Of a DNA stretch of 64,000 nucleotides, positions 506 to 46,504 are shown one piece after another (the stretch's first letter is position 1; each line of letters starts with the position of its first letter). Position numbers and translations under genes: made by a program. Source of the DNA: Hanleya hanleyi (lineage: Eukaryota; Mollusca; Polyplacophora; Lepidopleurida; Hanleyidae); the NCBI GenBank assembly GCA_036873755.1, contig JAVTVY010020301.1, positions 17,419 through 81,418 on the forward strand. Direction: 5' to 3'. The notes beneath the pieces are model-generated. The model made no database searches. It was not told the origin of the DNA and saw only the letters and a program-made list of their open reading frames with translations.

Positions 506-538
506 AACCAACAGCAGCAGCAGGACAGCTCAGTCGTC

Positions 539-1731: not shown

Positions 1732-1734
1732 AAC

Positions 1735-2991
1735 ATGTCCTTGATCCACACCGAGTCCTGCCCCTCCACCAACAGTGAATTTGATTTGTGGACCGTGCCG
1801 CCCACACAGACCAGTGCCGAACAAGGATTATGGGTGGAGCATCTCCCGCTCTCCAGCATCAACGCAACAGGGCCCATCGAGTTCACCATCAGTAATGCGG
1901 ATACGGCCTATGTGGATTTAGCCCATACATACTTGTATGTGAAAGCCAAGATCGTCAATGGAGATGGCACCAGAATCGCCGACCAAGCAACGGTGGGCCC
2001 CACGAATCTCTGGCTGCACTCGATGTTTCAACAGGTGGATATATTTCTCAGCGACAAACTCATCAGTGACTCGACCAACACGTACCCCTATCGAGCCTAC
2101 ATCGAGACGCTGTTGTCGCATGGGCGAGAGGCTAAAAAATCTCAACTGACAGCCGCGTTATTCTACCAGGACAAAGCCGAGCACATGGGCGCAGAGAACG
2201 ACAATACGGGATATAGCAAACGGAAGGCTTTGACCGCGAACGGCGTCTCGGTGGATCTCATGGGTCGACTGCACGCAGACATGTTCATGCACGACCGGTA
2301 CCTCTTGAACAAGATCCCCATCAAAATCCGACTGATACAGGCGCCTCCGACCTTCGACTTGGTGGCAACTAACGTAAACGGGCATGCAGCTGACTATAAG
2401 ATTGTCATCGAAGACGCAGTCCTTTATGTCCGAAAAATGAAACCGAATCCAGCCGTACAATTGGGACACATGAAAGCCTTGGAAACAAAACCAGCCCAGT
2501 ACCTTATCCGACGTGTGCAAACCAAAGTGTTCTCTGTGTCTGCTGGAAATATGAGCGCCAACAAAGAAAACCTGTTACTGGGGGAACTACCCAAGCGATT
2601 GATCCTGGCCTGTGTGGAAAATACCAGTTTCAGCGGAGTCTACCCAGAGAACCCGTTTGATTTTAAACATTTCGGCATCAATTTTGTGGCCCTGCATGTG
2701 GATGGACAACAGGTCCCAGCCAGGGCCTTAACACCGAACTTTGGGCGCGCGAATTTCATTCGAGCCTATCAGAGCCTGTTTACAGCCACCGGTCAAATCA
2801 ACCAGGACGAAGGGAATTTTATCAGCCGGGAGGACTACGTGAACGGATACACGTTGTCCTGTTTCGATTTGACCCCCACCTTAGAGAACGACCATCAGCT
2901 GGCCTTCGCCAAGCAAGACAATTTACGGTTGGAAATTCACTTTCAACGAGCCCTCCGGAGCACCGTCAATGTAATCTGCTACGCCGAGTAA
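1735..2991 (+). CDS. Major capsid protein, double-jelly-roll candidate (418 aa)
   Basis: Open frame of 418 residues starting three bases after the pVI/pX-like stop. It matches the capsid protein typical of Polintons and adintoviruses: acidic N-terminus with SEFDLWTVPPTQTS, a first beta domain with 'TYLYVKAKIVNGDGT' and 'FQQVDIFLSDKLIS', a central linker, and a second beta domain rich in aromatic strands ([28 protein letters not shown]). Compared with copies B and C the C-terminus is shortened: about 35 bases are missing after ..ICYAE (2989), so the last 20 or so residues (ending NVLCDFST in the others) are absent and a new stop is used. Otherwise this is the only capsid frame in the window without an internal break. 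Confidence 0.85.
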   Translation: MSLIHTESCPSTNSEFDLWTVPPTQTSAEQGLWVEHLPLSSINATGPIEFTISNADTAYVDLAHTYLYVKAKIVNGDGTRIADQATVGPTNLWLHSMFQQVDIFLSDKLISDSTNTYPYRAYIETLLSHGREAKKSQLTAALFYQDKAEHMGAENDNTGYSKRKALTANGVSVDLMGRLHADMFMHDRYLLNKIPIKIRLIQAPPTFDLVATNVNGHAADYKIVIEDAVLYVRKMKPNPAVQLGHMKALETKPAQYLIRRVQTKVFSVSAGNMSANKENLLLGELPKRLILACVENTSFSGVYPENPFDFKHFGINFVALHVDGQQVPARALTPNFGRANFIRAYQSLFTATGQINQDEGNFISREDYVNGYTLSCFDLTPTLENDHQLAFAKQDNLRLEIHFQRALRSTVNVICYAE

Positions 2992-3017
2992 CTTCCTGTG
3001 TGACTTCTCCACCTAAC

Positions 3018-3480
3018 ATGGATACAGATCAGAAAACCACCGTGCTGGAGAATGACCCAGAGACACGTATGGTGTTTCAAGGGGTGTTCGCCCGAGATGT
3101 GTTTCCATTAGACCGTATGTATCCTGCTGCTTACGTTCTCAACACGGACCCGATGGATCGGTGAACATTGGGTGGGCGTGTACTTGACAGAACAGCAGGG
3201 GGAATACTTTGACCCGTACGGCATGCCACCCCTCCATCCCGATTTAACAGACTTCATGGATCAAGGCACAGAGACGTGGTGTTGGAACAGTCAAACGTTG
3301 CAAAGCCTAACCAGTAGCGTGTGCGAACAATATTGCTTGTTTTACCTGTACCATCGATGCCGAAGAAGATCCTTATCTACCATCGTACAGATGTTTGACC
3401 CCAAGGTAGAGGACCGCGATGTACTCGTATATGACTGAGCCGCCCATCATTTCAATGTACAAGCCCCGTTCTGGGCTTAA
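3018..3480 (+). pseudogene. Adenain-type maturation protease remnant, copy A
   Basis: Starts at ATG 3018, 14 bases after the old capsid stop position. The catalytic histidine block (GEHWV), the acidic FDPYG block and the cysteine block (Q-x6-C followed by EQYCLFYLY) are recognisable, as in adenovirus protease/Ulp1-fold peptidases. It is broken by a loss of bases just before the histidine block near 3163 (frameshift), a second small deletion after QMFD near 3399, and TGG to TGA at 3436-3438. The family cuts capsid and core precursors during virion maturation. The intact relative in this window is at 21885-22358. Confidence 0.8.
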
Positions 3481-3595
3481 GTTCTTTCAATGTATACACG
3501 CCCGCAGTTCTGGGCTTAAGTTTACAAGCCCCCTGTTCTGGGCTTCAGTTCTTTCAATGCACAAGCCCCCTGATCTGGGCTTCAGTTTTCACGTG
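3454..3595 (+). repeat. Tandem stem-loop repeats after the protease gene
   Basis: Four degenerate units of the form ACAAGCCCC-n-GTTCTGGGCTT-(A/C)AGTTCTTTCAATG. Each unit can fold AAGCCC against GGGCTT. The first unit is the end of the protease reading frame itself, so the array looks like amplification of the 3' coding end. Equivalent arrays follow the protease in all four protease copies (20508-20665, 22330-22460, 46505-46690), with different copy numbers. Confidence 0.8.
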
Positions 3596-3622
3596 GTTGT
3601 TCTCACGTTGTTGTTGTTACTG

Positions 3623-3628
3623 AATAAA
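3623..3628 (+). terminator. Polyadenylation signal of the capsid-side transcript
   Basis: AATAAA lies about 145 bases after the old protease stop, right after a GTTGTTGTTGTT run and the stem-loop array, and is followed by a T-rich stretch (GTCTTGTGTGTTTTATTC). The same arrangement is conserved at 22496-22501 (+), 20463-20468 (-) and 46469-46474 (-). Confidence 0.6.
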
Positions 3629-3639
3629 AAACAAAATGA

Positions 3640-4389
3640 GATCTCACCAAAAAACCCTGTCTTGTGTGTTTTATTCATAATGCATAAATGCCCAATGTGG
3701 AGATTCAGTCAAACTAAAATCAGTGGTGTAGGATGGGGCCAAAATATAACCCATCAATGTTAGAATGCAAGAGCACTATAGTAAAATAGAGAGCCAATGA
3801 AATCAGCCCACAGACCAAGTACGTGTTTTGGTCTAGGTTTGGAGCGGGCATTTCATTGAGGTGCGTGTAAAGGAAGACGGTGAGTGAAGACTCGTCCATA
3901 ACGTATAGATTAAGTTTATTACTATAAGTTCTATGTATATTTAAATATGGAAAAACCCGGATGTAAGATGAGAACCTGGATGTAAAACCGCAGTATCCAG
4001 ATGGAAGACGGAAATAACCCACTGGGAAACTCGGATGTTGAGAAGAACCCGGAAGTAGGCGCGGACGTAGGCGAAAGCATCCTAGTACCCGGATGTAGGC
4101 GCAGACGTGTACCTAGTACCCGTCCATTGGTCGTCGCTATATAGCTGAAATATTGCTGAATGCGACGTTAAACCCTAATTCTCTCGCTCTCTCTCCCGTC
4201 CATTCGTTCTTTTATCGATCGCTCATTGGCTCTTTTTTCTCGACCGCTGATTGGTCCAAATGGAACTGCCCATCCTTCCCAGGTTAATTTACAATCCCCT
4301 TTTGGGGTTCAAGCTCTGACTATCGATGCCGCAACATTGTCGCCGAACCTTGCCGAAAGGGAGACCTTGGACCTTTTGACCTGGATGTG
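3640..4389 (+). other. Non-coding end region of copy A, inner part
   Basis: No credible gene. Contains sequence shared with the 3' flank of the other protease copies (AGTGGTGTAGGATGGGGCC..., CCAAGTACGTGTTTTGGTCTAGG) and degenerate CCAAT-box repeats near 4205-4262 (TCATTGGCT, TGATTGGTCC on +), the weakened counterpart of the tandem CCAATCAG arrays in the other copies. Confidence 0.55.
4119..4204 (+). mobile_element. Short retroposed tail with 10 bp target duplication
   Basis: A 66 bp segment (4129-4194) containing ATATTGCTGAATGCGACGTTAAACCC and a CT-rich end is flanked by CCCGTCCATT on both sides (4119-4128 and 4195-4204). The core resembles the 3' tail of SINE/LINE repeats abundant in gastropod genomes. 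The related end of copy B lacks the insert, so it entered after the element. Confidence 0.55.
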
Positions 4390-6347
4390 ACCTTTAACCT
4401 TTTGACCCGACATTCAGCCACGCACTTCCGGAGAACCCGCGCGCGGGCGCGCGCTGCGGCCGAAGAACCAGCGCTCGCGCGCGCTGCCGCCGAAAAACCA
4501 GCGCTCGCGCGCGCTGCGGCCGGGGCGGGCCGGGCCGGGCCGGGAAAGGTGGAGGTAGTGTTTGAGCATTCTGAAAAACCGGAAGTGACGTCACACACTT
4601 GCTCAGACCCACCAAACCACGTGAATGTTAGTCCAGGTGGATGCTCCCCCACCTAGGCTTCACATGGATACCGCATTCGACAAAATAGGGCCATGAGGGG
4701 CCCACCTAGACCACAAAAACATCAATTTGCATACCCTTTGGTTACCGCGCATGTGCAGAATACCCTATTTCTACCCCTCATCCACGCCATCAGATGCTCC
4801 ATTACATAGGCTTCACATGGATACCTCACACGACCCATTGGAACCGAGAATAGCCCATCTCTAACCCCAACACACCCACATACACCCCCAAAAATGCATG
4901 CTTTCGATGCTACGGCATGCTACGGTTGGAAAGTAGATTTCCAACCGTAAATTGCCTTGCTTGGCGAGGGCCAGCTGATGGTCGTCCTGTAAGGTGGGGG
5001 TCAAATCGAAACAGAACAACGTGTATCCGTTCCCGTAGTCCTCCCGACTGATAAAATTCTCTTCGTCCTGGTTGATTTGACCGGTGGCTGTAAACAGGCT
5101 CTGATAGGCTCGAATGAAATTCGCGCACCCAAAGTTCGGAACCATTAGTGTAGTCAAGTGCTCCTGCATGAGAGCTTCACAATGCTACCTCACTCGACCC
5201 TATCGGACCATTAGTGGCCCACCTAGATCCCAACACGTTCGCACCGTGTGGACCTATACACACATTGCCATGCAGTATAGGCCTATGGGCCTACCCAGGT
5301 CTCGGTGACTTTTTTCAAAAATATCACCGTTTCGTGCCGGGACACTTCCTATCATGTTTGTCTTGACGAGACTAAGAAAACAAATCCAAACAACCATACC
5401 GCAAATGTCTAGAAGTAGGTTTCCCACTGGGCAAACATTGGTCCTATACCCCTAGTATGGGACTATATGGGTCTCCCTGAACTTTTTCCAAAAATTTCAA
5501 CGATTCGCTCCGCGACACTCCCTATCATGTTTGTCTTGACGAGACTAAGAAAACGAGACCCCACAACCTATACCGCAAATGTCGAGAAGTAGGTTTCCCA
5601 GAATGGTCCTATACCCCCCATACCCCATATAGGCATTTTCCCGTAATTTAGGATAAAGTCCGTGTTCCGTTTTTTTTTAGGAAAATTTTTACATACACCC
5701 ACCCTGGAACTAGGGGGAGATAACTCTATTGATAGGCACTGCCCGCTAAGCCCGGCGACCTATATACCCCCATACCCCATATAGGCATTTTCCTGGATTT
5801 TTCGATAAAGTCCGTGTTCCGTTTTTTTTTCAGGAAATATTTTACATGCACCCACCCATGACTGGATGCCCCTTCACATAGGCTTCACATTGATACCTCA
5901 TACAACTCCATCGGCCCATTAGGGGCTCCCCTAGGTCCCAAAACGTCTATTTCCATACCCTTGGTCCACCGCGCATGCGCAGAATGGTGACAACGCCCGA
6001 GCCGCTAGTCCAGTCAGATGCCCCTTCACGAATGCTTCACATGGATACCTCATATGACCCCATTGGACCATTAGGGGCTTCCTAGCTCCAAAACGTCTAG
6101 TTCATACCCTTTGGCCACCGCGCATGCGCAAAATGACACTAGTTCAATCCCACACCCAGCCCATCAGATGCCCCTGGACGAATGCTTCACTTTGATATCT
6201 CACTCGACCCCATCGGTCCACTAGGGACCCACCTCGATCCCAAAACGTCTATTTAGGTATAGAGTGTATAGATGACGCTACCATCGGAAGTGACGTCATT
6301 TTCACATCCGGGTGAAAGTTACCCCCATTTAGCCTTTCCCTACTACT
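4390..6347 (+). repeat. Terminal inverted repeat of copy A (right end)
   Basis: About 1.95 kb that matches, in the same outward direction, the outer end of copy B (about 54990-57022), as expected for opposite ends of one element family with long TIRs. Order outward: GC-rich block with runs of GCGC (4420-4545), ETS-CRE composite CCGGAAGTGACGTCA (4579-4593), two tandem units of about 185 bp containing CTTCCTATCATGTTTGTCTTG (5330-5640), paired blocks with GATAAAGTCCGTGTTCCG (5640-5860), three tandem units of about 150 bp carrying NRF1-like GCGCATGCGC (5870-6240), a last ETS-CRE site (6284-6298), and the terminus ATTTAGCCTTTCCCTACTACT. Confidence 0.75.
4925..5139 (-). pseudogene. Antisense capsid gene fragment inside the TIR
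   Basis: 215 bp on - encode the part of the major capsid gene corresponding to roughly 2739-2943 of copy A ([34 protein letters not shown]). It replaces about 50 bp that copy B has at the same point of its TIR (an NRF1 palindrome at 55586-55597), with TIR sequence ACCATTAGTGTAGTCAAGTGCT resuming immediately after. The fragment is therefore a secondary capture, inverted relative to the capsid gene. Confidence 0.85.
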
Positions 6348-15644: not shown

Positions 15645-15650
15645 AGTGGA
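15645..15650. repeat. Target site duplication AGTGGA (left)
   Basis: AGTGGA directly precedes the terminus AGTAGTATAC and is repeated directly after the opposite terminus at 27275-27280. A 6 bp duplication is the length known for Polintons. Confidence 0.85.
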
Positions 15651-15748
15651 AGTAGTATACAAAGGCTAAATTGGCGTAATAGCGCCTCACTGCGCATGCG
15701 CAGAACCTTGTGTGACGTCATAAGTGTGTTTGTGCGCATGCGTGATGT

Positions 15749-16318
15749 GTGGGAGGTGGGTACAAGATGGCCGCGAGTGTGAGTGAGTGCAAGATGTGGG
15801 AGGTGGGTACAAGATGGCCGCGAGTGTCATGTGTGGGAGGTGGGTACAAGATGGCCGCGAGTGTGATCGCCAGTGTCATGTGTGGGAGGTGGGTACAAGA
15901 TGGCCGCCAGTGTGAGTGCAAGATGTGGGAGGTGGGTACAAGATGGCCGCGAGTGTCATGATGTGGGAGGTGGGTACAAGATGGCCGCCAGTGTGAGTGA
16001 GATGTGGGAGGTGGGTACAAGATGGCCGCCAGTGTGAGTGAGATGTGGGAGGTGGGTACAAGATGGCCGCGAGTGTTATTTGGTGGGAGGTGGGTACAAG
16101 ATGGCCGCCAGTGTGAGTGGAAGATGTGGGAGGTGGGTACAAGATGGCCGCGAGTGTTATTTGGTGGGAGGTGGGTACAAGATGGCCGCCAGTGAGTGCA
16201 AGATGTGGGAGGTGGGTACAAGATGGCCGCCAGTGTGAGTGGAAGATGTGGGAGGTGGGTACAAGATGGCCGCCAGTGTCAGTGAGATGTGGGAGGTGGG
16301 TACAAGATGGCCGCGAGT
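15749..16318 (+). repeat. YY1-like site array, left arm (14 units)
   Basis: Fourteen tandem units of about 40 bp with GGGAGGTGGGTACAAGATGG followed by CCGC(C/G)AGTGTGAGTG. CAAGATGGCCGC fits the YY1 binding consensus (core ATGGC). The last unit is followed by GTATAAAAGG at 16325-16334. Long reading frames through the array on - are repeat artefacts. Confidence 0.85.
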
Positions 16319-16324
16319 AGTAAA

Positions 16325-16334
16325 ATGTATAAAA
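16325..16334 (+). promoter_or_regulatory. TATA box next to the YY1-like array, with terminus-like sequence
   Basis: GAGTAGTAAAATGTATAAAAGGAGTCGATTTTTAGGG resembles the element terminus AGTAGTGTATAAAAGCTAAATTG and carries a good TATA box. It could drive transcription inward from the arm (inference). Confidence 0.4.
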
Positions 16335-16388
16335 GGAGTCGATTTTTAGGGAAAGGGGTGTATTCAATCTGACTTACCTGACCTGACC

Positions 16389-16445
16389 TGTCTCCCTGCC
16401 TGCCTGCCTGCCTGCATCCCTGCCTTGCTTGCCTGCCTGCATTCT
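16389..16445 (+). repeat. (CTGC)n microsatellite, left arm
   Basis: CTGCCTGCCTGCCTGCCTGC-type run; the mirror copy is at about 26450-26510. Confidence 0.7.
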
Positions 16446-16449
16446 GCCT

Positions 16450-16795
16450 GTATGGAATGCATGTACTGACTTGGTTCTGGTTTTTTCCATCACGGTTGTG
16501 CGCAGGTGTATGACGTCACTTCCGGTCTGCGTGAATCGGGTGTGACCTGGGACTATGGGATGCATGTACTGACTTGGTTCTGGGTATTTGTCATCACGGG
16601 GAGGTCACGTGATCAGTTCAAGGTCATATCCATTTTTTTCCATCACGGTTGTGCGCAGATGTATGACGTCACTTCCGGTCTGCGTGAATCGGGCGTGACC
16701 TGGGACTATGGGATGCATGTACTCACTTGGTTCTGGGTATTTGTCATCACGGGGAGGTCACTTGATCAGTTCAAGGTCATATCCATTTTTTATCG
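16450..16795 (+). repeat. ETS-CRE tandem repeats, left arm
   Basis: Two and a half units of about 150 bp. Each holds TGACGTCACTTCCGG (16511-16525 and 16664-16678), a CRE fused to an ETS site, plus GGTCACGTGATC (an E-box; CACTTG in the second unit) and CATCACGGTTGTGCGCAG. Confidence 0.75.
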
Positions 16796-16799
16796 ATAT

Positions 16800-17290
16800 G
16801 TCAACCCACACCCAGTCCATTAGATGCTCCTTCACCTCAGCTTCACTTTGATACCTCACTCGTCCCCATTAGACCATTAGGGGCTCCCCTAGCTCCAAAA
16901 AAGGCTATTTTCATAGCCTTCGGCCTTCGCGCATGCGCAGAATCACCCTAATTCAAGCCCACACCCAGTCCTATCAGATGCTCCTTCACGGCACCTTCAC
17001 TTTGATACCTCACTCGACCCGATTGGACCATTAGGGACGCCTCTAACCCCAAAAAGGCTATTTTCACACCCTTCGGCCGCTGCGCATGCGCAGAAGGCCG
17101 ATAGTTCAATCCCATACCCACCCCATTAGATGCTCCGTCACTTTACCTTCAATTTGATACCTCACTCGACCCCATTCGTCCATTTTAAAAATTTTTTTTT
17201 TTTGGCTATCTCCTACCTCCAAAAACGTCTATTTTCATACCTTTCGGCTACCGCGCATGCGCAAAATGCCCATAGTTCAATCCATACCCA
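16800..17290 (+). repeat. Subterminal ~155 bp repeats with NRF1-like palindromes, left arm
   Basis: Three units, each with CTTCACTTTGATACCTCACTCG, CCATTAGGGGCTCCC and a GCGCATGCGCA palindrome (near 16930, 17084 and 17253). Homologous units occur in the TIRs of copies A (5870-6240) and B (55420-56720). Confidence 0.8.
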
Positions 17291-17325
17291 ACCCATTACA
17301 TGCTATTTATAGGCAAGTGGGCTGA

Positions 17326-17548
17326 AGTGGGAGGTGGGTACAAGATGGCCGCGAGTGTCATGATGTGGGAGGTGGGTACAAGATGGCCGCCAGTGTGAGT
17401 GAAAGATGTGGGAGGTGGGTACAAGATGGCCGCCAAGTGTCAGTGAGTGTAAGATGTGGGAGGTGGGACAACATGGCCGCCAGTGTCAGTGAGTGAGTGA
17501 GTGAGTGCAAGCTGTGGGAGGTGGGTACAACATGGCCGCCAGTGTCAG
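17326..17548 (+). repeat. Second YY1-like array, left arm (5 units)
   Basis: Five further GGGAGGTGGGTACAAGATGGCCGCC-type units; in the last two the site is CAACATGGCCGCC. The mirror copy is at about 25346-25568. Confidence 0.8.
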
Positions 17549-18697
17549 TTAGTGCAACAATAGGCTTGCCCACAGTGTTTTTTTGCTGTGTTACTTAAGC
17601 ATAAAAATTTCCTATTTTTTCCGATAAATCCGTTTCAATTTTCACGGAATTATGATAACACTGTAATCCATAGTCTACACGTATTTGTTTAGCCAAGAAA
17701 ATCAATTTTATTTCGAATGTACCTGGTGTTTTCATTCTACCGTACACGAACTTTATGGTGCATAATTTCTTCGCCCTTGCAGCTACACCGGATGTTACTC
17801 CAGACGTCTATCAATGTTTTGACAATATATACACTGCATATTAGAAAATATGTTGAAACCACAAGATAAAGACAAAGAAGGCCCACTGTATAGTGCTGTG
17901 TTACCATCGCCCAAGCATTAAAATTTCCTAGTTTTATTTCGAATCATCAGATTTTAGTGCATAATATTGCTGAAATAATGCCAACAGAAAACTCAGAGTC
18001 AATTTAAATATTTATTTGTATTGAGCAAATTACAAGAATTTCGAAGAGAAAAGAGCCGAAATAATGTCTGTCTGTCCTGAAAATCAGCTGATCAGCAATA
18101 AATCGACATCTCCGTGACCTTCAAGGAGATTTTGACATTAGGTTTTACCCGCTTTTATCACAAATCATTATAAAGAAATTGTCACACCCGGTGAACTCCT
18201 GAAACCCACATCCTACCTGAGAGTTTGGTAAGATATTCCATTCATTCGTTACCGTGGAGTAGAATTTCATCCATCAGTTTTCACTGTTGTGGTGCCAAAC
18301 ACAAAAATTGACAAATTATACGGACTGCCACGATAAGCGAATGTATGCAACAAAATAGCGTTCCGTACTGCACATGTCCGATAAAATCCCTCCAGTCGTT
18401 ACAGAATGTTGATTCCACAAAACCTGTTCGGTGGCCTACATCATCGTTCAATCGCTGATCATAAAGGCTGCGTTCAGCTCACCAGAACTGTCTACACTTC
18501 GAAATCTGTGAAAGAATATCAATTTTCACGTTTCCTGTCTGATATCAGTCACACAAATTGATGCGTCCGCTGGAACACAGCACACTCCCTCGATTATAGT
18601 CTACGTGTTACATGCAGGCGATGCATGATGCAGATCACATTATTCATCTCAGCGGACACCGAAAGGAACAAAGTTCCGTTATAAACTGCGACAGAGA
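17549..18697. other. Unassigned segment of the left arm
   Basis: AT-rich, no gene recognised. Two related passages (TGCTGTGTTACTTAAGCATAAAAATTTCC near 17585 and TGCTGTGTTACCATCGCCCAAGCATTAAAATTTCC near 17895) suggest an internal duplication. The mirror lies at about 24200-25320. Confidence 0.4.
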
Positions 18698-19012
18698 ATG
18701 TTCCCCAGCTCAGAAAACAACACAATGATCAGTGAAATCGTCCTTCGTATGCAGGACGCTAACAAAACGCTAACAAAATGGCTACTGAAGACCAAAATTT
18801 GCCCGGATAATCGCGTCGTTCAAACCACAGCGCCACCTATACGCTTTGGTGCAAGGGAGACAACTCGGACTAGACCAATTCGAAGATCATGTCCGCTATA
18901 TTTGGCCTGTATGGGTATAGGGGTGGTCGGGTTTTTTTTTATGGCTTTTACTATGAGCTATGAGGTTGATCATGTAGAATACGATGGAAAAAACTATCAA
19001 AGTACCGCGTAG
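18698..19012 (+). CDS. Hypothetical protein in the left arm (104 aa)
   Basis: Open frame MFPSSENNTMISEIVLRMQD... with a charged first half and one hydrophobic segment (LACMGIGVVGFFFMAFTMS) near residues 68-86. I do not recognise a family. The mirror copy in the right arm is broken by one base in the same homopolymer (8 versus 9), so there is no evidence of constraint on both copies. It may be chance, or captured sequence. Confidence 0.25.
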   Translation: MFPSSENNTMISEIVLRMQDANKTLTKWLLKTKICPDNRVVQTTAPPIRFGARETTRTRPIRRSCPLYLACMGIGVVGFFFMAFTMSYEVDHVEYDGKNYQSTA

Positions 19013-19145
19013 GCTTGTATATAGATCCATATAGACCCATATACACTCATATACTGTATAAATCCATACGGGTGGACATGTTGGAGTCTAGGTGGAGCAC
19101 TAGTGGCCCGATGGGGTAGAGTGAGGTCTTATTTTAAAAGCTCTC

Positions 19146-19152
19146 GAGGAAA

Positions 19153-19183
<31 letters not shown>

Positions 19184-19185
19184 AA
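19146..19185 (+). repeat. (AAAT)n microsatellite, left arm
   Basis: GAAATAAATAAATAAATAAA-type run; the mirror is at about 23715-23755. Confidence 0.75.
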
Positions 19186-19308
19186 AAATCAAAAAAATCG
19201 GCGAGTAGTAGACGAAGGGAAAATTGGAAAGTATTGACCATGCCCCAGAATACTTCATATGCATATCACGGCCTTAAGGCCTATGTAAGATGTAATCTAC
19301 TTCACAGT

Positions 19309-19325
19309 TTAGTAGTATAAAAAGC
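19309..19325 (+). promoter_or_regulatory. Internal terminus-like motif with TATA box
   Basis: AGTAGTATAAAAAGCGCAATTC matches the terminal motif (AGTAGT..TATAAAAGC.AATT) but lies 3.66 kb inside the arm. It is followed within 100 bp by an ETS-CRE site, as at true ends. The mirror is GCGCTTTTTATACTACT at about 23570-23587. It suggests one element end nested in another, or an inward promoter. Confidence 0.5.
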
Positions 19326-19394
19326 GCAATTCACCTTGACCCTTCCAAAGAAATAAAATCGGCTCTATTTTACAGGAGTATATACGCAGGTGAC

Positions 19395-19570
19395 GTGGGT
19401 TGTGACGTCACTTCCGGGTTTTCACTAAACACTACCTCCAAACATACAAGAGTTCCAATGTTCAACCGCCGGGGTGTTTTCCCGCCCCAGCGCCCCGCAG
19501 CGCGTGCGCGCGCGCGCGTCATCTCGCGTCATCCCCGGCAGTGCGCGCGCGCGGACGCGGGTCAAAAGGT
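19395..19570 (+). promoter_or_regulatory. ETS-CRE site and GC-rich block, left arm
   Basis: TGACGTCACTTCCGG at 19403-19417, then CGCCCCAGCGCCCCGCAGCG and GCGCGCGCGC runs to about 19560. The same order is found near 4390-4593, 23340-23494 and 54990-55205. Confidence 0.6.
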
Positions 19571-19707
19571 CAAAGGGTCACCTCCAGGTCAGACGGTCCA
19601 ATGTCCAATGAGACAATGTTGCGGCATCGCTATAGTGAGAGCTTGAGCACAAAAAAAAAGGGGGGGATTCTAGATGAACCTGGGAAAGATGGGCAGTTCC
19701 ATGTGGA

Positions 19708-19811
19708 CCAATCAGCGGTCGAGAAAAAGAGCCAATCAGCGGTCGAGAAAAAGAGCCAATCAGCGGTCGAGAAAAAAGAACCAATCAGCGGTCGAACAAT
19801 CAGCCAATCGA
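19708..19811 (+). promoter_or_regulatory. Tandem CCAATCAG (NF-Y-like) array, left arm
   Basis: Four units of about 25 bp, each CCAATCAGCGGTCGAGAAAA, with CCAATCAG at 19708, 19732, 19756 and 19781, then CCAATCGA at 19804. CCAATCAG is the NF-Y consensus. Spacing of about 24-25 bp is close to two helical turns, so sites would lie on one face. Confidence 0.65.
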
Positions 19812-20462
19812 ATTGGGGTATTCACGGTGTGCTTTCGCTGACGTCCGCGCCTACATCTGGGTTCTTGTACACGCGGGTAATGTTTTTCTGGACATGGATG
19901 GGTTACCTTTGGCTCCATTCTAGGCCACTGATGGGCTAATACGGTGTTCAAAGCCACTTTCATGCATTATGCTCATAGAACTTATACAACATAATCTATA
20001 CGTGTTGGACGAGTCTCTTCACTCACCGTATACACGTACCTCAATGAAATGCCCGCTCCAAACCTAGACCAAAGAAACACGTACTTGGTCTGTAGGCTGA
20101 TTTCATTATTCTCTATTTTTACTATGGTCTTTCTTTGCATTCTAACCTTGTTGAGGTTACCTAGCACTGACCAGTCATAATCGACGTGTTGGACGAGTCT
20201 CTTCACTCACCACGTATACACGTACCTCAATGAAATACCCGCTCCAAACCTAGACCAAAAACACGTACTTGGTCACCAGCGGGCTGATTTCATTGGCTCT
20301 CTATTTTTACTATAGTGCTCTTGCATTCTAAACTTGATGGGTTACATTTTTGGTCCCATCCTACACCACTGATTTCAGTTTGACTGAATCCTCCACATTA
20401 GGCATTAATGCATCAGGAATAAAACTTGCACAAGACAGGGTTTTTTTGGTGAGATCATTTTT

Positions 20463-20468
20463 TTTATT
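20463..20468 (-). terminator. Polyadenylation signal, left-arm protease
   Basis: AATAAA on - after the stem-loop array and a GTTGTTGTTG run, as in the other copies. Confidence 0.5.
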
Positions 20469-20507
20469 CAGTGAACAACAACAACGTGAGCAACCAGGCG
20501 AAAACTG

Positions 20508-20665
20508 AAGCCCAGAACAAGGGGCTTGTCATTAACTGAAGCCCAGAACAAAGGGCTTGTCATTAACTGAAGCCCAGAACAAGGGGCTTGTCATTAACTT
20601 AAGCCCAGAACGGGGCTTGTACATTGAAATGATTCAAGCCCAGAACGGGGCTTGTACATTGAAAT
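20508..20665 (-). repeat. Stem-loop array, left arm
   Basis: Tandem units with GAAGCCCAGAACAAGGGGCTTG on +, three of them with spacer TCATTAACT, then two with a shorter loop (AAGCCCAGAACGGGGCTTG). Confidence 0.8.
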
Positions 20666-21106
20666 GATGGGCGGCCCAGTCATAGACGAGTACATCGCGG
20701 TCCTCGGCCTGGGGGCACTCGTCAAACATCTGTACGATAGTAGATAAGGGTCTTCCCCGGCATCGATGGTACAGGTAAAACAAGCAATATTGTCCGCACA
20801 CGCCACTGGTCAGACTTTGCAACGTTTGACTGTTCCAACACCACGTCTCTGTGCCTTGATCCATGAAGTCTGTTAAATCGGGATGGAGGGTGGCAGGCCG
20901 TACGGGTCAAAGTATTCGCCCTGCTGTTCTGTCAAGTACACGGCCACCCAGTGTTCACCGGGTCGATCCATCGGGTCCGTGTTGAGAACGTAAGCAGCAG
21001 GATACACACGGTCTAATGGAAACACATCTCGGGCGAACACCCCTTGAAAAACCCTACGTGTCTCTGGGTCATTCTCCAGCACGGTGGTTATCTGGTCTGT
21101 ATCCAT
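20634..21106 (-). pseudogene. Adenain-type protease, left arm (one-base frameshift)
   Basis: ATG at 21106 on -. The frame carries GEHWV (catalytic His) and YFDPYG (acidic residue), then loses one C in a C run after PYGLPP near 20885 and shifts. The downstream part (20634-20864) still shows the glutamine and cysteine block Q-x6-C-GQYCLFYLY. All catalytic residues survive, but the frame is broken. The intact sister copy is in the right arm. Confidence 0.85.
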
Positions 21107-21183
21107 GTTAGGTGGAGAAGTCACACAGGACGTTGCGCGCCTTGTCCACTTGAATGATGTTGTCAAACTCGGCGTAGCAGATC

Positions 21184-21807
21184 AAAAAATTCGCCTTGAT
21201 GGCCACTAACGTAGAGGGTCATGTAGCGGACTATAAGATTGTCATCCAAGACGCAGTCCTGTATGTCCGAAAAGTGAAACCGAATCCAGCCGTTCAATTG
21301 GGACACATGAAAGCCTTGGAAACAAAACCAGCCCAGTACCCTATCCGACGTGTACAAACCAAAGTGTTCTCTGTGCCTGTTGGAAATATGGGCGCCAACA
21401 AATAAAACCTGTTCCTGGGGGAACTACCCAAGCGATTGATCCTGGCCTGTGTAGAAAATACCAGTTTCAGCGGAGCCTACCCAGAGAATCCGTTTGACTT
21501 TAAACATTTCGGCATCAATTTTGTGGCCCTGCATGTGGATGGACAACAGGTGCCAGCCACGGCCTTAACCCCGAACTTTGGGCGGAGAATTTCATTCGAG
21601 CCTATCAGAGCCTGTTAACAGCCACCGGTCAAATCAACCAGGACGAAGGGAATATGATCAGTCGGGAGGACTACGCGAACGGATACACGTTGTTCTGTTT
21701 CGATCTGCCCCCACCTTAGAGAACGACCATCAGCTGGCCCTGGCCAAGCAAGGCAACTTACGGTTGGAAATCCACTTTGCACGAGCCCTGGCGACCACCG
21801 TCAATGT
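21184..21807. other. Asymmetric centre of the palindrome
   Basis: Not mirrored. Left edge: arm sequence ..GTAGCAGATC, then AAAAAA (21184-21189), then capsid gene sequence. Right edge: capsid gene runs on into the right arm without interruption (..GTGATCTGCTACGCC). The junction lacks homology between the joined segments. Confidence 0.7.
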
Positions 21808-21883
21808 GATCTGCTACGCCGAGTTTGACAACATCATTCAAGTGGACAAGGCGCGCAACGTCCTGTGTGACTTCTCCACCTAA
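21190..21883 (+). pseudogene. Major capsid gene, 3' fragment
   Basis: Encodes the second half of the capsid protein from LMATNVEGH..DYKIVI to the C-terminal NVLCDFST. It starts abruptly at the fold-back junction, and is broken by TAA at 21403-21405 (AAG/GAA context in the other copies) and by base losses near 21590 and 21705. The C-terminal 20 residues missing from copy A are present here. Confidence 0.85.
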
Positions 21884-21884
21884 A

Positions 21885-22358
21885 ATGGATACAGACCAGA
21901 TAACCACCGTGCTGGAGAATGACCCAGAGACACGTAGGGTCTTTCAAGGGGTGTTCGCCCGAGATGTGTTTCCATTAGACCGTATGTATCCTGCTGCTTA
22001 CGTTCTCAACACGGACCCGATGGATCGACCCGGTGAACACTGGGTGGCCGTGTACTTGACAGAACAGCAGGGGGAATACTTTGACCCGTACGGTCTGCCA
22101 CCCCTCCATCCCGATTTAACAGACTTCATGGATCAAGGCACAGAGACGTGGTGTTGGAACAGTCAAACGTTGCAAAGCCTGACCAGTGGCGTGTGCGGAC
22201 AATATTGCTTGTTTTACCTGTACCATCGATGCCGGGGAAGACCCTTATCTACCATCGTACAGATGTTTGACGAGTACCCCCAGGCCGAGGACCGCGATGT
22301 ACTCGTCTATGACTGGGCCGCCCATCATTTCAATGTACAAGCCCCGTTCTGGGCTTGA
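21885..22358 (+). CDS. Adenain-type maturation protease, intact (157 aa)
   Basis: ATG at 21885, one base after the capsid TAA, is chosen because the other copies share this start; an upstream in-frame extension only reads capsid sequence in another frame. Features in order: N-terminal helix MDTDQITTVLEN, VFARDVFPLDR, GEHWVAVYL with the catalytic His near residue 58, YFDPYG with the acidic residue, then Q-SLTSGV-C with the oxyanion Gln and nucleophile Cys seven residues apart, as in adenovirus protease, followed by GQYCLFYLYHRC. Length is somewhat below the roughly 200 residues of adenovirus protease. The family cleaves capsid precursors at virion maturation. This is the only protease copy in the window without a break. 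Confidence 0.9.
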   Translation: MDTDQITTVLENDPETRRVFQGVFARDVFPLDRMYPAAYVLNTDPMDRPGEHWVAVYLTEQQGEYFDPYGLPPLHPDLTDFMDQGTETWCWNSQTLQSLTSGVCGQYCLFYLYHRCRGRPLSTIVQMFDEYPQAEDRDVLVYDWAAHHFNVQAPFWA

Positions 22359-22460
22359 ATTATTTCAATGTACATACGCCCGCTGTTCTGGGCTTCAATG
22401 TACAAGCCCCTTGTTCTGGGCTTCAGTTAATGACAAGCCCCTTGTTCTGGGCTTCAGTTT
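22330..22460 (+). repeat. Stem-loop array, right arm
   Basis: Units ACAAGCCCCTTGTTCTGGGCTTCAG with variable spacers, beginning in the last codons of the protease. Confidence 0.8.
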
Positions 22461-22495
22461 TCACGTGGTTGTTCTCACGTTGTTGTTGTTCACTG

Positions 22496-22501
22496 AATAA
22501 A
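22496..22501 (+). terminator. Polyadenylation signal, right-arm protease
   Basis: AATAAA followed by an A run; about 140 bases after the protease stop, matching copy A. Confidence 0.6.
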
Positions 22502-23101
22502 AAAAAAAAAAATGAGATCTCACCAAAAAACCCTGTCTTGTGTGTTTTATTCCTGATGCATTAATGCCCAATGTGGAGATTCAGTCAAACTGAAATCAGT
22601 GGTGTAGGATGGGACCAAAATGTAACCCATCAAGTTTAGAATGCAAGAGCACTATAGTAAAAATAGAGAGCCAATGAAATCAGCCTACAGACCAAGTACG
22701 TGTTTTTGGTCTAGGTTTGGAGCGGCATTTCATTGAGGTACGTGTATACGGTGAGTGAAGAGACTCGTCCAACACGTATAGATTATGTTGATGACTATAA
22801 GTTCTAGGTAACCCATCAAGGTTAGAATGCAAGAGCACTATAGTAAAAATAGAGAGCCAATGAAATCAGCCTACAGACCAAGTACGTGTTTTGGTCTAGG
22901 TTTGGAGCGGGCATTTCATTGAGGTACGTGTATACGGTGAGTGAAGAGACTCGTCCAACACGTATAGATTATGACTATAAGTTCTATTAGCCAATCAGTG
23001 GCCTAGAATGGAGCCAAAGGTAACCCATCCATGTCCAGAAAAACATTACCCGTGTACAAGAACCCAGATGTAGGCGCGGACGTCAGCGAAAGCACACCGT
23101 G

Positions 23102-23195
23102 AATACCCCAATTCGATTGGCTGATTGTTCGACCGCTGATTGGTTCTTTTTCTCGACCGCTGATTGGCTCTTTTTCTCGACCGCTGATTGGTCCA
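23102..23195 (-). promoter_or_regulatory. CCAATCAG array, right arm
   Basis: Inverse copies CTGATTGG at about 23119, 23139, 23160 and 23182; one unit fewer of the repeated spacer than in the left arm. Confidence 0.6.
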
Positions 23196-23339
23196 AATGG
23201 AACTGCCCATCTTTCCCAGGTTCATCTAGAACCCCCCCCCCTTTTTTTGTGCTCAAGCTCTCACTATAGCGATGCCGCAACATTGTCTCATTGGACATTG
23301 GACCGTCTGACCTGGAGGTGACCCTTTGACCTTTTGACC

Positions 23340-23494
23340 CGCGTCCGCGCGCGCACTGCCGGGGATGACGCGAGATGACGCGCGCGCGCGCACGCGCTGC
23401 GGGGCGCTGGGGCGGGAAAACACCCCGGCGGTTGAACATTGCAACTCTTGTATGTTTGGAGGTAGTGTTTAGTGAAACCCCGGAAGTGACGTTA
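23340..23494 (-). promoter_or_regulatory. GC-rich block and ETS-CRE site, right arm
   Basis: GCGCGC runs, then CCGGAAGTGACGTTA at 23480-23494 (one base off the CRE palindrome). Confidence 0.55.
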
Positions 23495-23714
23495 CAACCC
23501 ACGTCACCTGCGTATATACTCCTGTAAAATAGAGCCGATTTTATTTCTTTGGAAGGGACAAGGTGAATTGCGCTTTTTATACTACTAAACTGTGATGTAG
23601 ATTACATCTTACATAGGCCTTAAGGCCGTGATATGCCTATGAAGTATTCTGGGGCATGGTCAATACTTTCCACTTTTCCCTTCGTCTACTACTCGCCGAT
23701 TTTTTTGATTTTTT

Positions 23715-23715
23715 T

Positions 23716-23746
<31 letters not shown>

Positions 23747-23755
23747 CCTCGAGAG
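23715..23755 (-). repeat. (AAAT)n microsatellite, right arm
   Basis: TTTATTTATTTATTTATTTA-type run mirroring 19146-19185. Confidence 0.7.
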
Positions 23756-23938
23756 CTTTAAAATAAGACCTCACTCTACCCCATCGGGCCACTAGTGCTC
23801 CACCTAGACTCCAACATGTCCACCCGTATGGATTTATACAGTATATGAGTGTATATGGGTCTATATGGATCTATATACAAGCCTACGCGGTACTTTGATA
23901 GTTTTTTCCATCGTATTCTACATGATCAACCTCATAGC

Positions 23939-24196
23939 TCATAGTAAAAGCCATAAAAAAAACCCGACCACCCCTATACCCATACAGGCCAAATATAGCG
24001 GACATGATCTTCGAATTGGTCTAGTCCGAGTTGTCTCCCTTGCACCAAAGCGTATAGGTGGCGCTGTGGTTTGAACGACGCGATTATCCGGGCAAATTTT
24101 GGTCTTCAGTAGCCATTTTGTTAGCGTTTTGTTAGCGTCCTGCATACGAAGGACGATTTCACTGATCATTGTGTTGTTTTCTGAGCTGGGGAACAT
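23939..24196 (-). pseudogene. Hypothetical ORF in the right arm, frameshifted
   Basis: Mirror of the 104-codon frame at 18698-19012. The T run before the hydrophobic segment is one base shorter, giving a premature end after FFLWLLL. No family recognised. Confidence 0.25.
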
Positions 24197-25320
24197 TCTC
24201 TGTCGCAGTTTATAACGGAACTTTGTTCCTTTCGGTGTCCGCTGAGATGAATAATGTGATCTGCATCATGCATCGCCTGCATGTAACACGTAGACTATAA
24301 TCGAGGGAGTGTGCTGTGTTCCAGCGGACGCATCAATTTGTGTGATATCAGACAGGAAACGTGAAAATTGATATTCTTTCACAGATTTCGAAGTGTAGAC
24401 AGTTCTGGTGAGCTGAACGCAGCCTTTATGATCGGCGATTGAACGATGATGTAGGCCACCGAACAGGTTTTGTGGAATCAACATTCTGTAACGACTGGAG
24501 GGATTTTATCGGACATGTGCAGTACGGAACGCTATTTTGTTGCATACATTCGCTTATCGTGGCAGTCCGTATAATTTGTCAATTTTTGTGTTTGGCACCA
24601 CAACAGTGAAAGCTGATGGATGAAATTCTACTCCACGGAACGGTAACGAATGAATGGAATATCTTACCAAACTCTCAGGTAGGATGTGGGTTTCAGGAGT
24701 TCACCGGGTGTGACAATTTCTTTATAATGATTTGTGATAAAAGCGGGTAAAACCTAATGTCAAAATCTCCTTGAAGGTCACGGAGATGTCGATTTATTGC
24801 TGATCAGCTGATTTCCAGGACAGACAGACATTATTTCGGCTCTTTTCTCTTCGAAATTCTTGTAATTTGCTCAATACAAATAAATATTTAAATTGACTCT
24901 GAGTTTTCTGTTGGCATTATTTCAGCAATATTATGCACTAAAATCTGATGATTCGAAATAAAACTAGGAAATTTTAATGCTTGGGCGATGGTAACACAGC
25001 ACTATACAGTGGGCCTTCTTTGTCTTTATCTTGTGGTTTCAACATATTTTCTAATATGCAGTGTATATATTGTCAAAACATTGATAGACGTCTGGAGTAA
25101 CATCCGGTGTAGCTGCAAGGGCGAAGAAATTATGCACCATAAAGTTCGTGTACGGTAGAATGAAAACACCAGGTACATTCGAAATAAAATTGATTTTCTT
25201 GGCTAAACAAATACGTGTAGACTATGGATTACAGTGTTATCATAATTCCGTGAAAATTGAAACGGATTTATCGGAAAAAATAGGAAATTTTTATGCTTAA
25301 GTAACACAGCAAAAAAACAC
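24197..25320. other. Unassigned segment of the right arm
   Basis: Mirror of 17549-18697; AT-rich, no gene recognised. Confidence 0.4.
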
Positions 25321-25345
25321 TGTGGGCAAGCCTATTGTTGCACTA

Positions 25346-25568
25346 ACTGACACTGGCGGCCATGTTGTACCCACCTCCCACAGCTTGCACTCACTCACTC
25401 ACTCACTGACACTGGCGGCCATGTTGTCCCACCTCCCACATCTTACACTCACTGACACTTGGCGGCCATCTTGTACCCACCTCCCACATCTTTCACTCAC
25501 ACTGGCGGCCATCTTGTACCCACCTCCCACATCATGACACTCGCGGCCATCTTGTACCCACCTCCCAC
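25346..25568 (-). repeat. Second YY1-like array, right arm
   Basis: Five GGCGGCCAT(C/G)TTGTACCCACCTCCCAC units, mirroring 17326-17548. Confidence 0.8.
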
Positions 25569-25599
25569 TTCAGCCCACTTGCCTATAAATAGCATGTAA

Positions 25600-26100
25600 T
25601 GGGTTGGGTATGGATTGAACTATGGGCATTTTGCGCATGCGCGGTAGCCGAAAGGTATGAAAATAGACGTTTTTGGAGGTAGGAGATAGCCAAAAAAAAA
25701 AAATTTTTAAAATGGACGAATGGGGTCGAGTGAGGTATCAAATTGAAGGTAAAGTGACGGAGCATCTAATGGGGTGGGTATGGGATTGAACTATCGGCCT
25801 TCTGCGCATGCGCAGCGGCCGAAGGGTGTGAAAATAGCCTTTTTGGGGTTAGAGGCGTCCCTAATGGTCCAATCGGGTCGAGTGAGGTATCAAAGTGAAG
25901 GTGCCGTGAAGGAGCATCTGATAGGACTGGGTGTGGGCTTGAATTAGGGTGATTCTGCGCATGCGCGAAGGCCGAAGGCTATGAAAATAGCCTTTTTTGG
26001 AGCTAGGGGAGCCCCTAATGGTCTAATGGGGACGAGTGAGGTATCAAAGTGAAGCTGAGGTGAATGAGCATCTAATGGACTGGGTGTGGGTTGACATATC
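25600..26100 (-). repeat. NRF1-like subterminal repeats, right arm
   Basis: Three units with TGCGCATGCGC palindromes near 25631, 25803 and 25955, mirroring the left arm. Confidence 0.75.
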
Positions 26101-26104
26101 GATA

Positions 26105-26440
26105 AAAAATGGATATGACCTTGAACTGATCACGTGACCTCCCCGTGATGACAAATACCCAGAACCAAGTGAGTACATGCATCCCATAGTCCCAGGTCAC
26201 GCCCGATTCACGCAGACCGGAAGTGACGTCATACACCTGCGCACAACCGTGATGGAAAAAATGGATATGACCTTGAACTGATCACGTGACCTCCCCGTGA
26301 TGACAAATACCCAGAACCAAGTCAGTACATGCATCCCATAGTCCCAGGTCACACCCGATTCACGCAGACCGGAAGTGACGTCATACACCTGCGCACAACC
26401 GTGATGGAAAAAACCCAGAACCAAGTCAGTACATGCATTC
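26105..26440 (-). repeat. ETS-CRE tandem repeats, right arm
   Basis: CCGGAAGTGACGTCA at 26217-26231 and 26369-26383. Both units keep the E-box GATCACGTGACC, while the left arm has lost one. Confidence 0.75.
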
Positions 26441-26449
26441 CATACAGGC

Positions 26450-26510
26450 AGAATGCAGGCAGGCAAGCAAGGCAGGGATGCAGGCAGGCAGGCAGGCAGG
26501 GAGACAGGTC
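26450..26510 (-). repeat. (GCAG)n microsatellite, right arm
   Basis: GGCAGGCAGGCAGGCAGG-type run mirroring 16389-16445. Confidence 0.65.
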
Positions 26511-26577
26511 AGGTCAGGTAAGTCAGATTGAATACACCCCTTTCCCTAAAAATCGACTCCTTTTATACATTTTACTA

Positions 26578-27176
26578 CTCGCGGCCATCTTGTACCCACC
26601 TCCCACATCTCACTGACACTGGCGGCCATCTTGTACCCACCTCCCACATCTTCCACTCACACTGGCGGCCATCTTGTACCCACCTCCCACATCTTGCACT
26701 CACTGGCGGCCATCTTGTACCCACCTCCCACCAAATAACACTCGCGGCCATCTTGTACCCACCTCCCACATCTTCCACTCACACTGGCGGCCATCTTGTA
26801 CCCACCTCCCACCAAATAACACTCGCGGCCATCTTGTACCCACCTCCCACATCTCACTCACACTCGCGGCCATCTTGTACCCACCTCCCACATCTCACTC
26901 ACACTCGCGGCCATCTTGTACCCACCTCCCACATCTCACTCACACTGGCGGCCATCTTGTACCCACCTCCCACATGTCACTCACACTGGCGGCCATCTTG
27001 TACCCACCTCCCACATCTCACTCACACTCGCGGCCATCTTGTACCCACCTCCCACACATGACACTCGCGGCCATCTTGTACCCACCTCCCACATCTTGCA
27101 CTCACTCACACTCGCGGCCATCTTGTACCCACCTCCCACACATGACACTGGCGGCCATCTTGTACCCACCTCCCAC
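26578..27176 (-). repeat. YY1-like site array, right arm (15 units)
   Basis: Fifteen copies of GCGGCCATCTTGTACCCACC followed by TCCCACAT spacers; one more unit than the left arm. ORFs of up to 177 codons through it are repeat translation with a THLP/SRPSCTH pattern, not genes. Confidence 0.85.
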
Positions 27177-27274
27177 ACATCACGCATGCGCACAAACACA
27201 CTTATGACGTCACACAAGGTTCTGCGCATGCGCAGTGAGGCGCTATTACGCCAATTTAGCCTTTGTATACTACT

Positions 27275-27280
27275 AGTGGA
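27275..27280. repeat. Target site duplication AGTGGA (right)
   Basis: Direct repeat of 15645-15650, immediately after the terminus GTATACTACT. Confidence 0.85.
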
Positions 27281-45913: not shown

Positions 45914-45925
45914 CAGTTCCATTTG

Positions 45926-46015
45926 GACCAATCAGCGGTCGAGAAACAAGAGCCAATCAGCGGTCGAGAAAAAGAACCAATCAGCGGTCGAACAATCAGC
46001 CAATCGAATTGGGAG
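45926..46015 (+). promoter_or_regulatory. CCAATCAG array, copy B
   Basis: CCAATCAGCGGTCGAG-type units at about 45928, 45953 and 45977 plus CCAATCGAATTGG; the array abuts the truncation point. Confidence 0.6.
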
Positions 46016-46468
46016 TACTCACGGTGTGCTTTCGCCGACGTCCGCGCCTACATCTGGGTTCTTGTACACCCGGGTAATGCTTTCTGGACATGGATGGGTT
46101 ACCTTTGGCTCCATTCTAGGCCACTGATTGGCTAATACGGTGTTCAAAGCCACTTTCATGCATTATGCTCATATAACTTATAGTAATAAACTTAATCTAT
46201 ACGTGTTGGACGAGTCTTCAGTCACCGTCTTCCTTTACACGCACCTCAATGAAATGCCCGCTCCAAACCTAGACCAAAACACGTACTTGGTCTGTGGGCT
46301 GGTTTCATTGGCTCTCTATTTTACTATAGTGCTCTGGCATTCTAACATTGAGGGGTTACATTTTGGCCCCATCCTACACCACTGATTTCAGTTTGACTGA
46401 ATCTTCACATTGGGCATGATGAATAAAACACACAAGGCAGGTTTTTTTGGTAAGATCTCATTTTGTTT

Positions 46469-46474: not shown

Positions 46475-46504
46475 CAGTAACAACAACAACGTGAGAACAA
46501 CCAC

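What the first reader, a model, noticed from the sequence alone, without database searches (positions are those of the whole stretch)
15645..27280. Palindromic Polinton integrated as a unit with a 6 bp target duplication
Seen: 5.5 kb inverted arms, termini AGTAGT/ACTACT, and AGTGGA directly repeated outside both termini. Known: Polinton integrase makes 6 bp duplications at AG..CT-type termini. Inference: an inverted dimer of one element end existed before integration, like a fold-back defective viral genome, and was inserted by integrase supplied in trans. This would show that virus-like DNA forms other than full elements enter the germ line.
Basis: partly seen in the sequence, partly recalled or inferred. 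Interest (0 to 1): 0.88.

Follow-up and report, generated by a model that had tools for sequence, protein, structure and literature searches.

The report
Palindromic Polinton copy with target duplication
An 11.6-kb stretch of an animal genome is a virus-like mobile element (a Polinton) in which one end has been copied onto both sides as a mirror image, and matching 6-letter repeats outside suggest that this broken, two-headed form was inserted as one piece.

Summary
Window 15651-27274 is an imperfect palindrome: arms 5534 and 5468 bp, a 622-bp single-copy spacer, ends AGTAGT/ACTACT, AGTGGA directly repeated outside. It is Polinton DNA: the right arm holds an adenovirus-type protease frame, the spacer is capsid-gene DNA, and the ends recur across the same genome. 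Five complete copies read through share inverted sequence almost only within 1.6 kb of their ends. Here both ends are the protease end; at least 3.3 kb found on one side only of an ordinary copy is duplicated in inverted orientation, with one non-homologous junction. Of 7 copies with both termini seen, only this one and C52308 have a target duplication. The junction was found once (1 of 40 scored places, 904 candidates).

Formation before integration is favoured, not proven. A duplication dates the insertion, not the palindrome; remodelling of an integrated copy remains possible. Uneven arm divergence (0.2% at 16341-19150, 1.5-5% further in) does not fit the simplest fold-back. Misassembly is unlikely, but no reads were available. 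New variant of a known kind, seen once.

The parts
15645..15650 (.). target site duplication, left copy AGTGGA
15651..21184 (+). left arm: protease-side end of a Polinton, terminus AGTAGT outward
15651..16638 (+). part of the arm that integrase-side ends of ordinary copies also match (terminal repeat region with a 41-bp tandem array)
16639..17892 (+). arm part not seen at type A protease ends; holds a 152/153-bp repeat that also occurs near e1 and e2 and pieces shared with family B ends
17893..21184 (+). sequence at the protease side only of ordinary type A copies (17893-21184 in C47650, 18303-21184 in C35988, 19458-21184 in C7360, C26161, C26168)
21185..21189 (.). non-homologous junction: a short run of A between left arm and spacer; other copies' matches stop at 21186 or start at 21189/21190
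21190..21806 (+). single-copy spacer: C-terminal part of the major capsid gene, continuous with the right arm
21807..27274 (-). right arm: inverted copy of the left arm, terminus ACTACT at 27274
21810..22358 (+). open frame (182 aa, stop to stop) related to adenovirus-type protease (Peptidase_C5, below cut-off); the left-arm copy is broken (longest open stretch 102 aa)
27275..27280 (.). target site duplication, right copy AGTGGA
1..6343 (+). neighbouring Polinton copy e1 (matched span), cut by the window start, protease side at right; used for comparison
45914..57543 (-). neighbouring Polinton copy e2 (matched span) with integrase (51909-52943), ATPase (50725-51579), capsid region (47383-48318, by 94% DNA identity to e1) and protease side; used for comparison

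Best explanation
A non-autonomous Polinton derivative. The protease-side end of one element (terminus to the end of the capsid gene) was joined head to head with a second copy of the same end. This came about either by a replication strand folding back onto itself during extrachromosomal, protein-primed copying, or by end-joining of two broken sister molecules; the 622-bp unpaired spacer is the loop or overhang. Because each end carried a proper Polinton terminus, integrase made by a full element inserted the molecule, leaving a 6-bp duplication. Shown: palindromic structure, both ends being the protease end, proper termini, 6-bp duplication, one non-homologous junction. Inferred: palindrome before insertion, fold-back or end-joining, protein-primed copying, integrase in trans.
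For: Ends and duplication. Ordinary type A copies have unlike ends, a protease side and an integrase side (C7360, C47650, C26168; integrase sides also in C35988 and C30160). In 5 complete copies compared piece by piece, inverted matches stay within about 1.6 kb of the ends, apart from 10 short ones (the three printed are 129-134 bp) in C13113; here they run 5.5 kb. Over 17893-19430 the arms are each other's nearest relatives among the copies compared: 9 differences in 1531 judged sites, against 97.5% identity to the nearest other copy, C47650. Arm identity shows no step where the part shared with integrase ends stops (0/487 inside, 3/662 just beyond), as expected if the whole end was duplicated at once. 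The junction lacks homology and was found once. Total length 11,624 bp lies at the low end of the 6 other complete copies (11,572-15,178 bp); a constrained size is reported for vertebrate Mavericks (PMC8097293, passage seen). Of 7 copies with both termini seen, the two with like termini (this one, C52308) have a target duplication and the five with unlike termini do not, so this locus looks like a clean insertion.
Against: Divergence is uneven: 6/2803 at 16341-19150 but 11/720, 34/665 and 8/534 further in, and 10/680 in the terminal array, where one-step fold-back predicts uniformity. In the inner part the right arm is closer to C35988 (98.15% of 1138 positions) than to the left arm (48 mismatches, about 3%), and the left arm has 27 private changes against 9. 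At 13 of 54 arm differences that other copies could judge, both alleles occur in those copies, a slight excess in two segments (P 0.03 and 0.055) and none when 19901-20650 is left out of the inner one (3 of 12, P 0.13). No second copy of this junction was seen, so nothing shows that the palindrome ever replicated or moved more than once. The duplication would survive remodelling after insertion. No ordinary copy seen carries 16639-17892 together with the rest of the arm.
Confidence: 0.55

Rival explanations
1. Remodelled after insertion. An ordinary Polinton inserted here with its 6-bp duplication. A later break destroyed its integrase half; the surviving left terminal repeat invaded a protease-side end (its own or another copy's), copied inward, and the new end was joined to the remaining capsid gene.
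For: Keeps the duplication and both termini; explains the non-homologous junction and inner left-arm sequence that is more divergent and carries more private changes. A copy with a protease-side end grafted onto an integrase-side interior exists in the assembly: C39788 (98% to the protease end of C7360 over 1285 bp, then 98% and 99% to the integrase-side interiors of C7360 and C26168).
Against: If the left interior came from another copy, arm identity should drop near 16638, where the part shared with integrase ends stops; it does not (0/487 against 3/662) and stays at 0.2% to 19150. This does not speak against copying from the element's own other end. No remnant of an integrase half was seen: no match of left arm or spacer to e2 47698-54800.
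Confidence: 0.28
2. End-joining of two similar but different parent elements, both broken in the capsid region, before insertion; arms then partly evened out by conversion.
For: Inner arms differ by about 3% and share alleles with different other copies at some sites.
Against: Outer arms are 99.8% identical over 2.8 kb while the nearest other copy differs by 2.5% where compared (17893-19430); both arms share a 186-bp duplication absent from e1 and e2.
Confidence: 0.09
3. Assembly artefact: inverted join of two copies or of one copy read twice.
For: Draft assembly of 52,793 contigs with a repetitive family (2423 and 904 candidate places, 40 scored each); 5 of 7 copies with both termini seen lack matching duplications, so chimeric joins in this family are plausible; a noisy patch lies at 19901-20650.
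Against: A misjoin would give identical flanking 6-mers about once in 4096; the join has no overlapping homology, which overlap assemblers need (general knowledge); the arms differ by 69 substitutions and 34 indels, so it is not one read folded on itself.
Confidence: 0.08

Closest known systems
Polinton/Maverick elements (vertebrate Mavericks, PMC8097293; passages seen, not the whole text)
   Same: (AGT)2//(ACT)2 termini, 6-bp target duplications, protease, capsid gene with double-jelly-roll relatives, retroviral-type integrase in sister copies.
   Different: The reported terminal repeats are 46-1447 bp and the ends enclose a gene set; here the inverted repeat is 5.5 kb, both ends are the protease end, and no integrase or polymerase was found in it.
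Defective adenovirus genomes with large terminal inverted duplications, and palindromic derivatives of protein-primed yeast linear plasmids (both recalled; the listings did not show a paper on them)
   Same: One end of a protein-primed linear genome present twice in inverted orientation.
   Different: Those are free molecules; this one is a chromosomal insertion, and protein priming in this family was not shown here (no polymerase seen).
Fold-back transposons and other non-autonomous derivatives with long inverted repeats (recalled)
   Same: Long inverted arms, no recognised integrase, target duplication.
   Different: Here the arms are the end of a Polinton and include gene fragments; one copy seen.
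Teratorn (PMC6431247, passage seen)
   Same: Virus-derived mobile element with long inverted repeats.
   Different: Herpesvirus/piggyBac fusion, not a Polinton, not an end duplicated onto itself.

Membership tests
Polinton/Maverick (as a derivative) | conserved 6-bp end motif (AGT)2//(ACT)2 | tested here: met
   15651 AGTAGT, 27274 ACTACT; motif from PMC8097293 (passage)
Polinton/Maverick (as a derivative) | perfect 6-bp target site duplication | tested here: met
   AGTGGA, 1 of 55 candidate pairs, 0.013 expected
Polinton/Maverick (as a derivative) | sequence shared with elements carrying Polinton hallmark genes | tested here: met
   arm and/or spacer colinear with e1, e2, C7360, C26168, C47650, C35988, C26161; e2 has rve and an ATPase with weak A32/IVa2 matches; the 120 listed integrase relatives carry rve and nearly all a chromodomain; 1 of 4 capsid relatives scanned, P0012, hits DJR-like_dom; 2 of 8 protease relatives carry PF00770
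Polinton/Maverick (autonomous) | own integrase gene | tested here: not met
   no match of left arm or spacer to e2 47698-54800, which holds the integrase; no integrase domain in the 10 of 10 palindrome frames of 120 aa or more
Polinton/Maverick (autonomous) | protein-primed DNA polymerase B | tested here: inconclusive
   no polymerase B hit in the window frames scanned, none in the palindrome's 10 frames; the window's other frames and the rest of the genome were not all scanned
Fold-back defective viral genome | one genome end duplicated in inverted orientation around a short single-copy loop | tested here: met
Fold-back defective viral genome | formed in a free replicating molecule, passaged with a helper | not testable with these tools
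   no reads of free molecules; only one chromosomal copy of the junction seen

The most novel reading that the evidence does not exclude
Polintons in this animal make fold-back defective genomes while free in the nucleus, as protein-primed viruses do, and their integrase inserts such molecules as readily as full ones; this locus would be a chromosomal fossil of a Polinton defective genome and thus indirect evidence of an extrachromosomal replication phase.
Probability: 0.45. Interest if true: 0.75.

Novelty: new variant of a known kind. Interest (0 to 1): 0.52.

Why it matters
Replication of Polintons as free linear molecules is inferred mostly from their gene content (general knowledge). A palindromic copy with proper termini and a clean target duplication is what a fold-back error of such replication, followed by ordinary integration, would leave behind. 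A genome-wide count of such copies with their own duplications would make the question of an extrachromosomal phase testable in assemblies. It would also mean that the integrase needs only two termini, not a complete element.

Tried and rejected
Terminal repeats of 3.9 kb: at first the outer 3.9 kb of the arms looked like an ordinary long terminal repeat, because e1 and e2 share short repeats there. Copies from the same genome showed that integrase ends match the arm only from 16638 outward and that complete copies share inverted sequence almost only within 1.6 kb of the ends, so this was dropped.

Perfect fold-back with uniform arms: rejected in its simplest form by the uneven divergence. A patch at 19901-20650 (34/665) consists mostly of changes private to the left arm and may be assembly error or local conversion; it was not resolved.

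Sister palindromes: the junction query found 904 candidates, 40 scored, 1 spanning the junction (this locus). Of 6 other copies with both termini seen, 0 are palindromic: C52308, C13113, C7360, C26168 and C47650 were compared along their length; C47170 was seen at its ends only, which are of different kinds. Of 18 further ends typed, 5 are integrase ends (C7168, C26335, C32490, C47170, C26375), 13 are of another family or mosaic, and 0 are protease ends. Palindromes with other junctions were not searched for genome-wide.

Relatives in other collections: none in viral contigs (30 stretches matched a pattern, 0 confirmed); 3 loci in bacterial MAGs (18 stretches, 3 confirmed). Papers: nine searches of the held library, listings partly capped (for example 20 of 44); no listed title or abstract start describes a palindromic Polinton, and 'palindrom' does not occur in the main text of PMC8097293 or PMC6431247. 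That covers only that library and those terms.

Not answered: the searches with the arm piece 17450-18050 and with each host flank (for an empty site) were busy at every attempt; a spacer search was busy and not repeated.

Mended: the length shared by ordinary ends, and the part of the arm shown to be one-sided (17893-21184 instead of 16639-21184). 
Full report
OBSERVATION. The palindrome is real in the sequence given. Inverted arms run 15651-21184 and 21807-27274 around a 622-bp spacer. The outermost bases are AGTAGTATAC and GTATACTACT, with AGTGGA directly outside on both sides. In the whole window 55 pairs of AGTAGT...ACTACT lie 3-25 kb apart; one has identical 6-mers outside, this one, where 0.013 are expected. 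The search of the window's own genome (2.48 Gb, 52,793 contigs) returned 87 matches for the first 300 bases, from 40 scored of 2423 candidates. In 20 of 20 fetched loci the shared sequence starts at AGTAGT with different flanks, and its first 45 bases are identical in 19 of 20 (loci chosen by similarity to this end).

WHAT IT IS MADE OF. The right arm has a 182-aa open frame with a sub-threshold Peptidase_C5 match (19.7 bits, cut-off 21.3); of 8 database relatives, 2 carry PF00770. The spacer and the arm's innermost bases are the C-terminal part of a capsid frame. The neighbouring copy e1 holds a longer stretch of it (1732-2991); it has 518 relatives in the protein database, and 1 of 4 of these that I scanned, P0012, hits the double jelly-roll-like domain. 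No Pfam domain was found in the e1 frame itself, and no solved structure matched it (best E 1.4). The second neighbour, e2, has an integrase core domain and an ATPase with weak A32/IVa2-type matches; nearly all listed integrase relatives also carry a chromodomain. The top-ranked relatives with an organism name are from molluscs (Littorina, Liolophura); lower ones are from other animals too; the host itself was not identified. None of the palindrome's 10 frames of 120 aa or more shows an integrase, ATPase or polymerase domain. The end motif, the 6-bp duplication and the gene types are those described for Mavericks in PMC8097293 (passages seen).

ANATOMY AGAINST ORDINARY COPIES. Along contigs of the same genome, type A copies run: protease-side end; protease; capsid; ATPase; integrase; integrase-side end (C7360, C26168, C47650, and in part C35988, C26161, C30160). 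The integrase-side end matches the arm only from 16638 outward. The protease-side end matches 19458-21184 in C7360, C26161 and C26168, 18303-21184 in C35988 and 17893-21184 in C47650. No ordinary copy seen carries 16639-17892 next to these; family B copies have 16801-17303 (up to 96%) and 17364-17757 (about 77-79%) in the same order, and the 152-bp repeat in 16794-17303 also occurs beside e1 and on the integrase side of e2. So the arm is a protease-side end of mosaic make-up, and the palindrome has that end on both sides: 3.3 kb (17893-21184) shown to be one-sided in an ordinary copy, and perhaps up to 4.5 kb, is duplicated in inverted orientation. As a control, 5 complete copies were compared piece by piece for inverted matches: in C52308 these reach 1.6 kb from an end, in C7360, C26168 and C47650 none reaches beyond 2 kb, and in C13113 ten short ones (the three printed are 129-134 bp) lie further in; none is palindromic.

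THE JUNCTION. The left arm stops at about 21186 and the spacer starts at 21189-21190, with a short run of A between and no long homology. The spacer continues smoothly into the right arm, as in ordinary copies. The query across this junction gave 40 scored places of 904 candidates; only this locus spans it.

ARM DIVERGENCE. There are 69 mismatches in 5402 positions: 10/680 in the terminal array, 6/2803 at 16341-19150, 11/720 at 19151-19900, 34/665 at 19901-20650 and 8/534 at 20651-21184. Fisher tests against the quiet segment give P = 9e-5 (19151-19900) and 5e-4 (20651-21184). There is no step at 16638 (0/487 at 16151-16638, 3/662 at 16639-17300). Polarised by other copies, the inner part has 27 left-derived, 9 right-derived, 9 split and 3 unjudged differences; 17893-19430 has 1, 4, 4 and 0. 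Split sites exceed expectation slightly (4 of 9, P 0.03; 9 of 45, P 0.055; without 19901-20650, 3 of 12, P 0.13). I read this as one duplicated end, later changed in its inner part by conversion from the many copies that share it, or by assembly error in the left arm. Two similar parent molecules are not excluded.

INSERTION OR REMODELLING. Seven copies have both termini in view. Two have like termini and a perfect 6-bp duplication: this one, and C52308 with GTTGGC. Five have unlike termini and no duplication: C13113, C7360, C26168, C47650 and C47170. The five may be recombinants or misjoins. The two ends of the palindrome therefore most likely belong to one insertion. Whether the palindrome preceded it cannot be settled from the duplication alone. 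Absence of a step at 16638 and a length at the low end of complete copies (11,624 against 11,572-15,178) lean towards insertion as a unit, though copying from the element's own other end after insertion would leave no step either. The end graft in C39788 shows, if correctly assembled, that ends are swapped in this family by some route, free or integrated.

VERDICT. A single palindromic, non-autonomous Polinton derivative, most likely formed from one element end before integration and inserted by an integrase supplied in trans. Probabilities: insertion as a unit after fold-back or sister joining 0.55; remodelling after insertion 0.28; two-parent joining 0.09; artefact 0.08.

Noticed in passing
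window 4929-5139: The neighbouring Polinton e1 carries a 211-bp inverted copy of its own capsid gene (2734-2944, 95%) inside its end region, in place of about 35 bp found in e2: another inverted copying event.
   Followed up: partly
L018 (C39788:15421-17874): A protease-side end of about 1.28 kb (98% to C7360) sits directly on an integrase-side interior (98-99%): an end swap, if correctly assembled.
   Followed up: partly
L007, L008, L009, L012, L014, L021, L022, L033: A second group of Polintons (integrase about 75% identical to that of e2 in the loci where it was seen) shares the same terminal sequence and pieces of the arm; ends look exchanged between groups.
   Followed up: partly
C13113, C7360, C26168, C47650, C47170: Five copies with both termini seen have unlike termini and no target duplication: recombination or misassembly.
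   Followed up: partly
window 35041-38272: Perfect tandem duplication of 1617 bp (100%) reaching into a BEL/Pao-type retroelement (37674-42554); possibly an assembly duplication.
   Followed up: no
window 59415-61830 and 63645-64000: Diverged 166-bp satellite array and a 15-bp array at the window end.
   Followed up: no
L001, L002, L003: Contigs filed as bacterial MAGs (tubeworm endosymbiont, Breoghania) encode Polinton-type capsid proteins, probably animal DNA in the bins.
   Followed up: no
window 19901-20650: Patch of clustered substitutions and many small indels, mostly private to the left arm: local assembly error, error-prone synthesis or conversion.
   Followed up: partly
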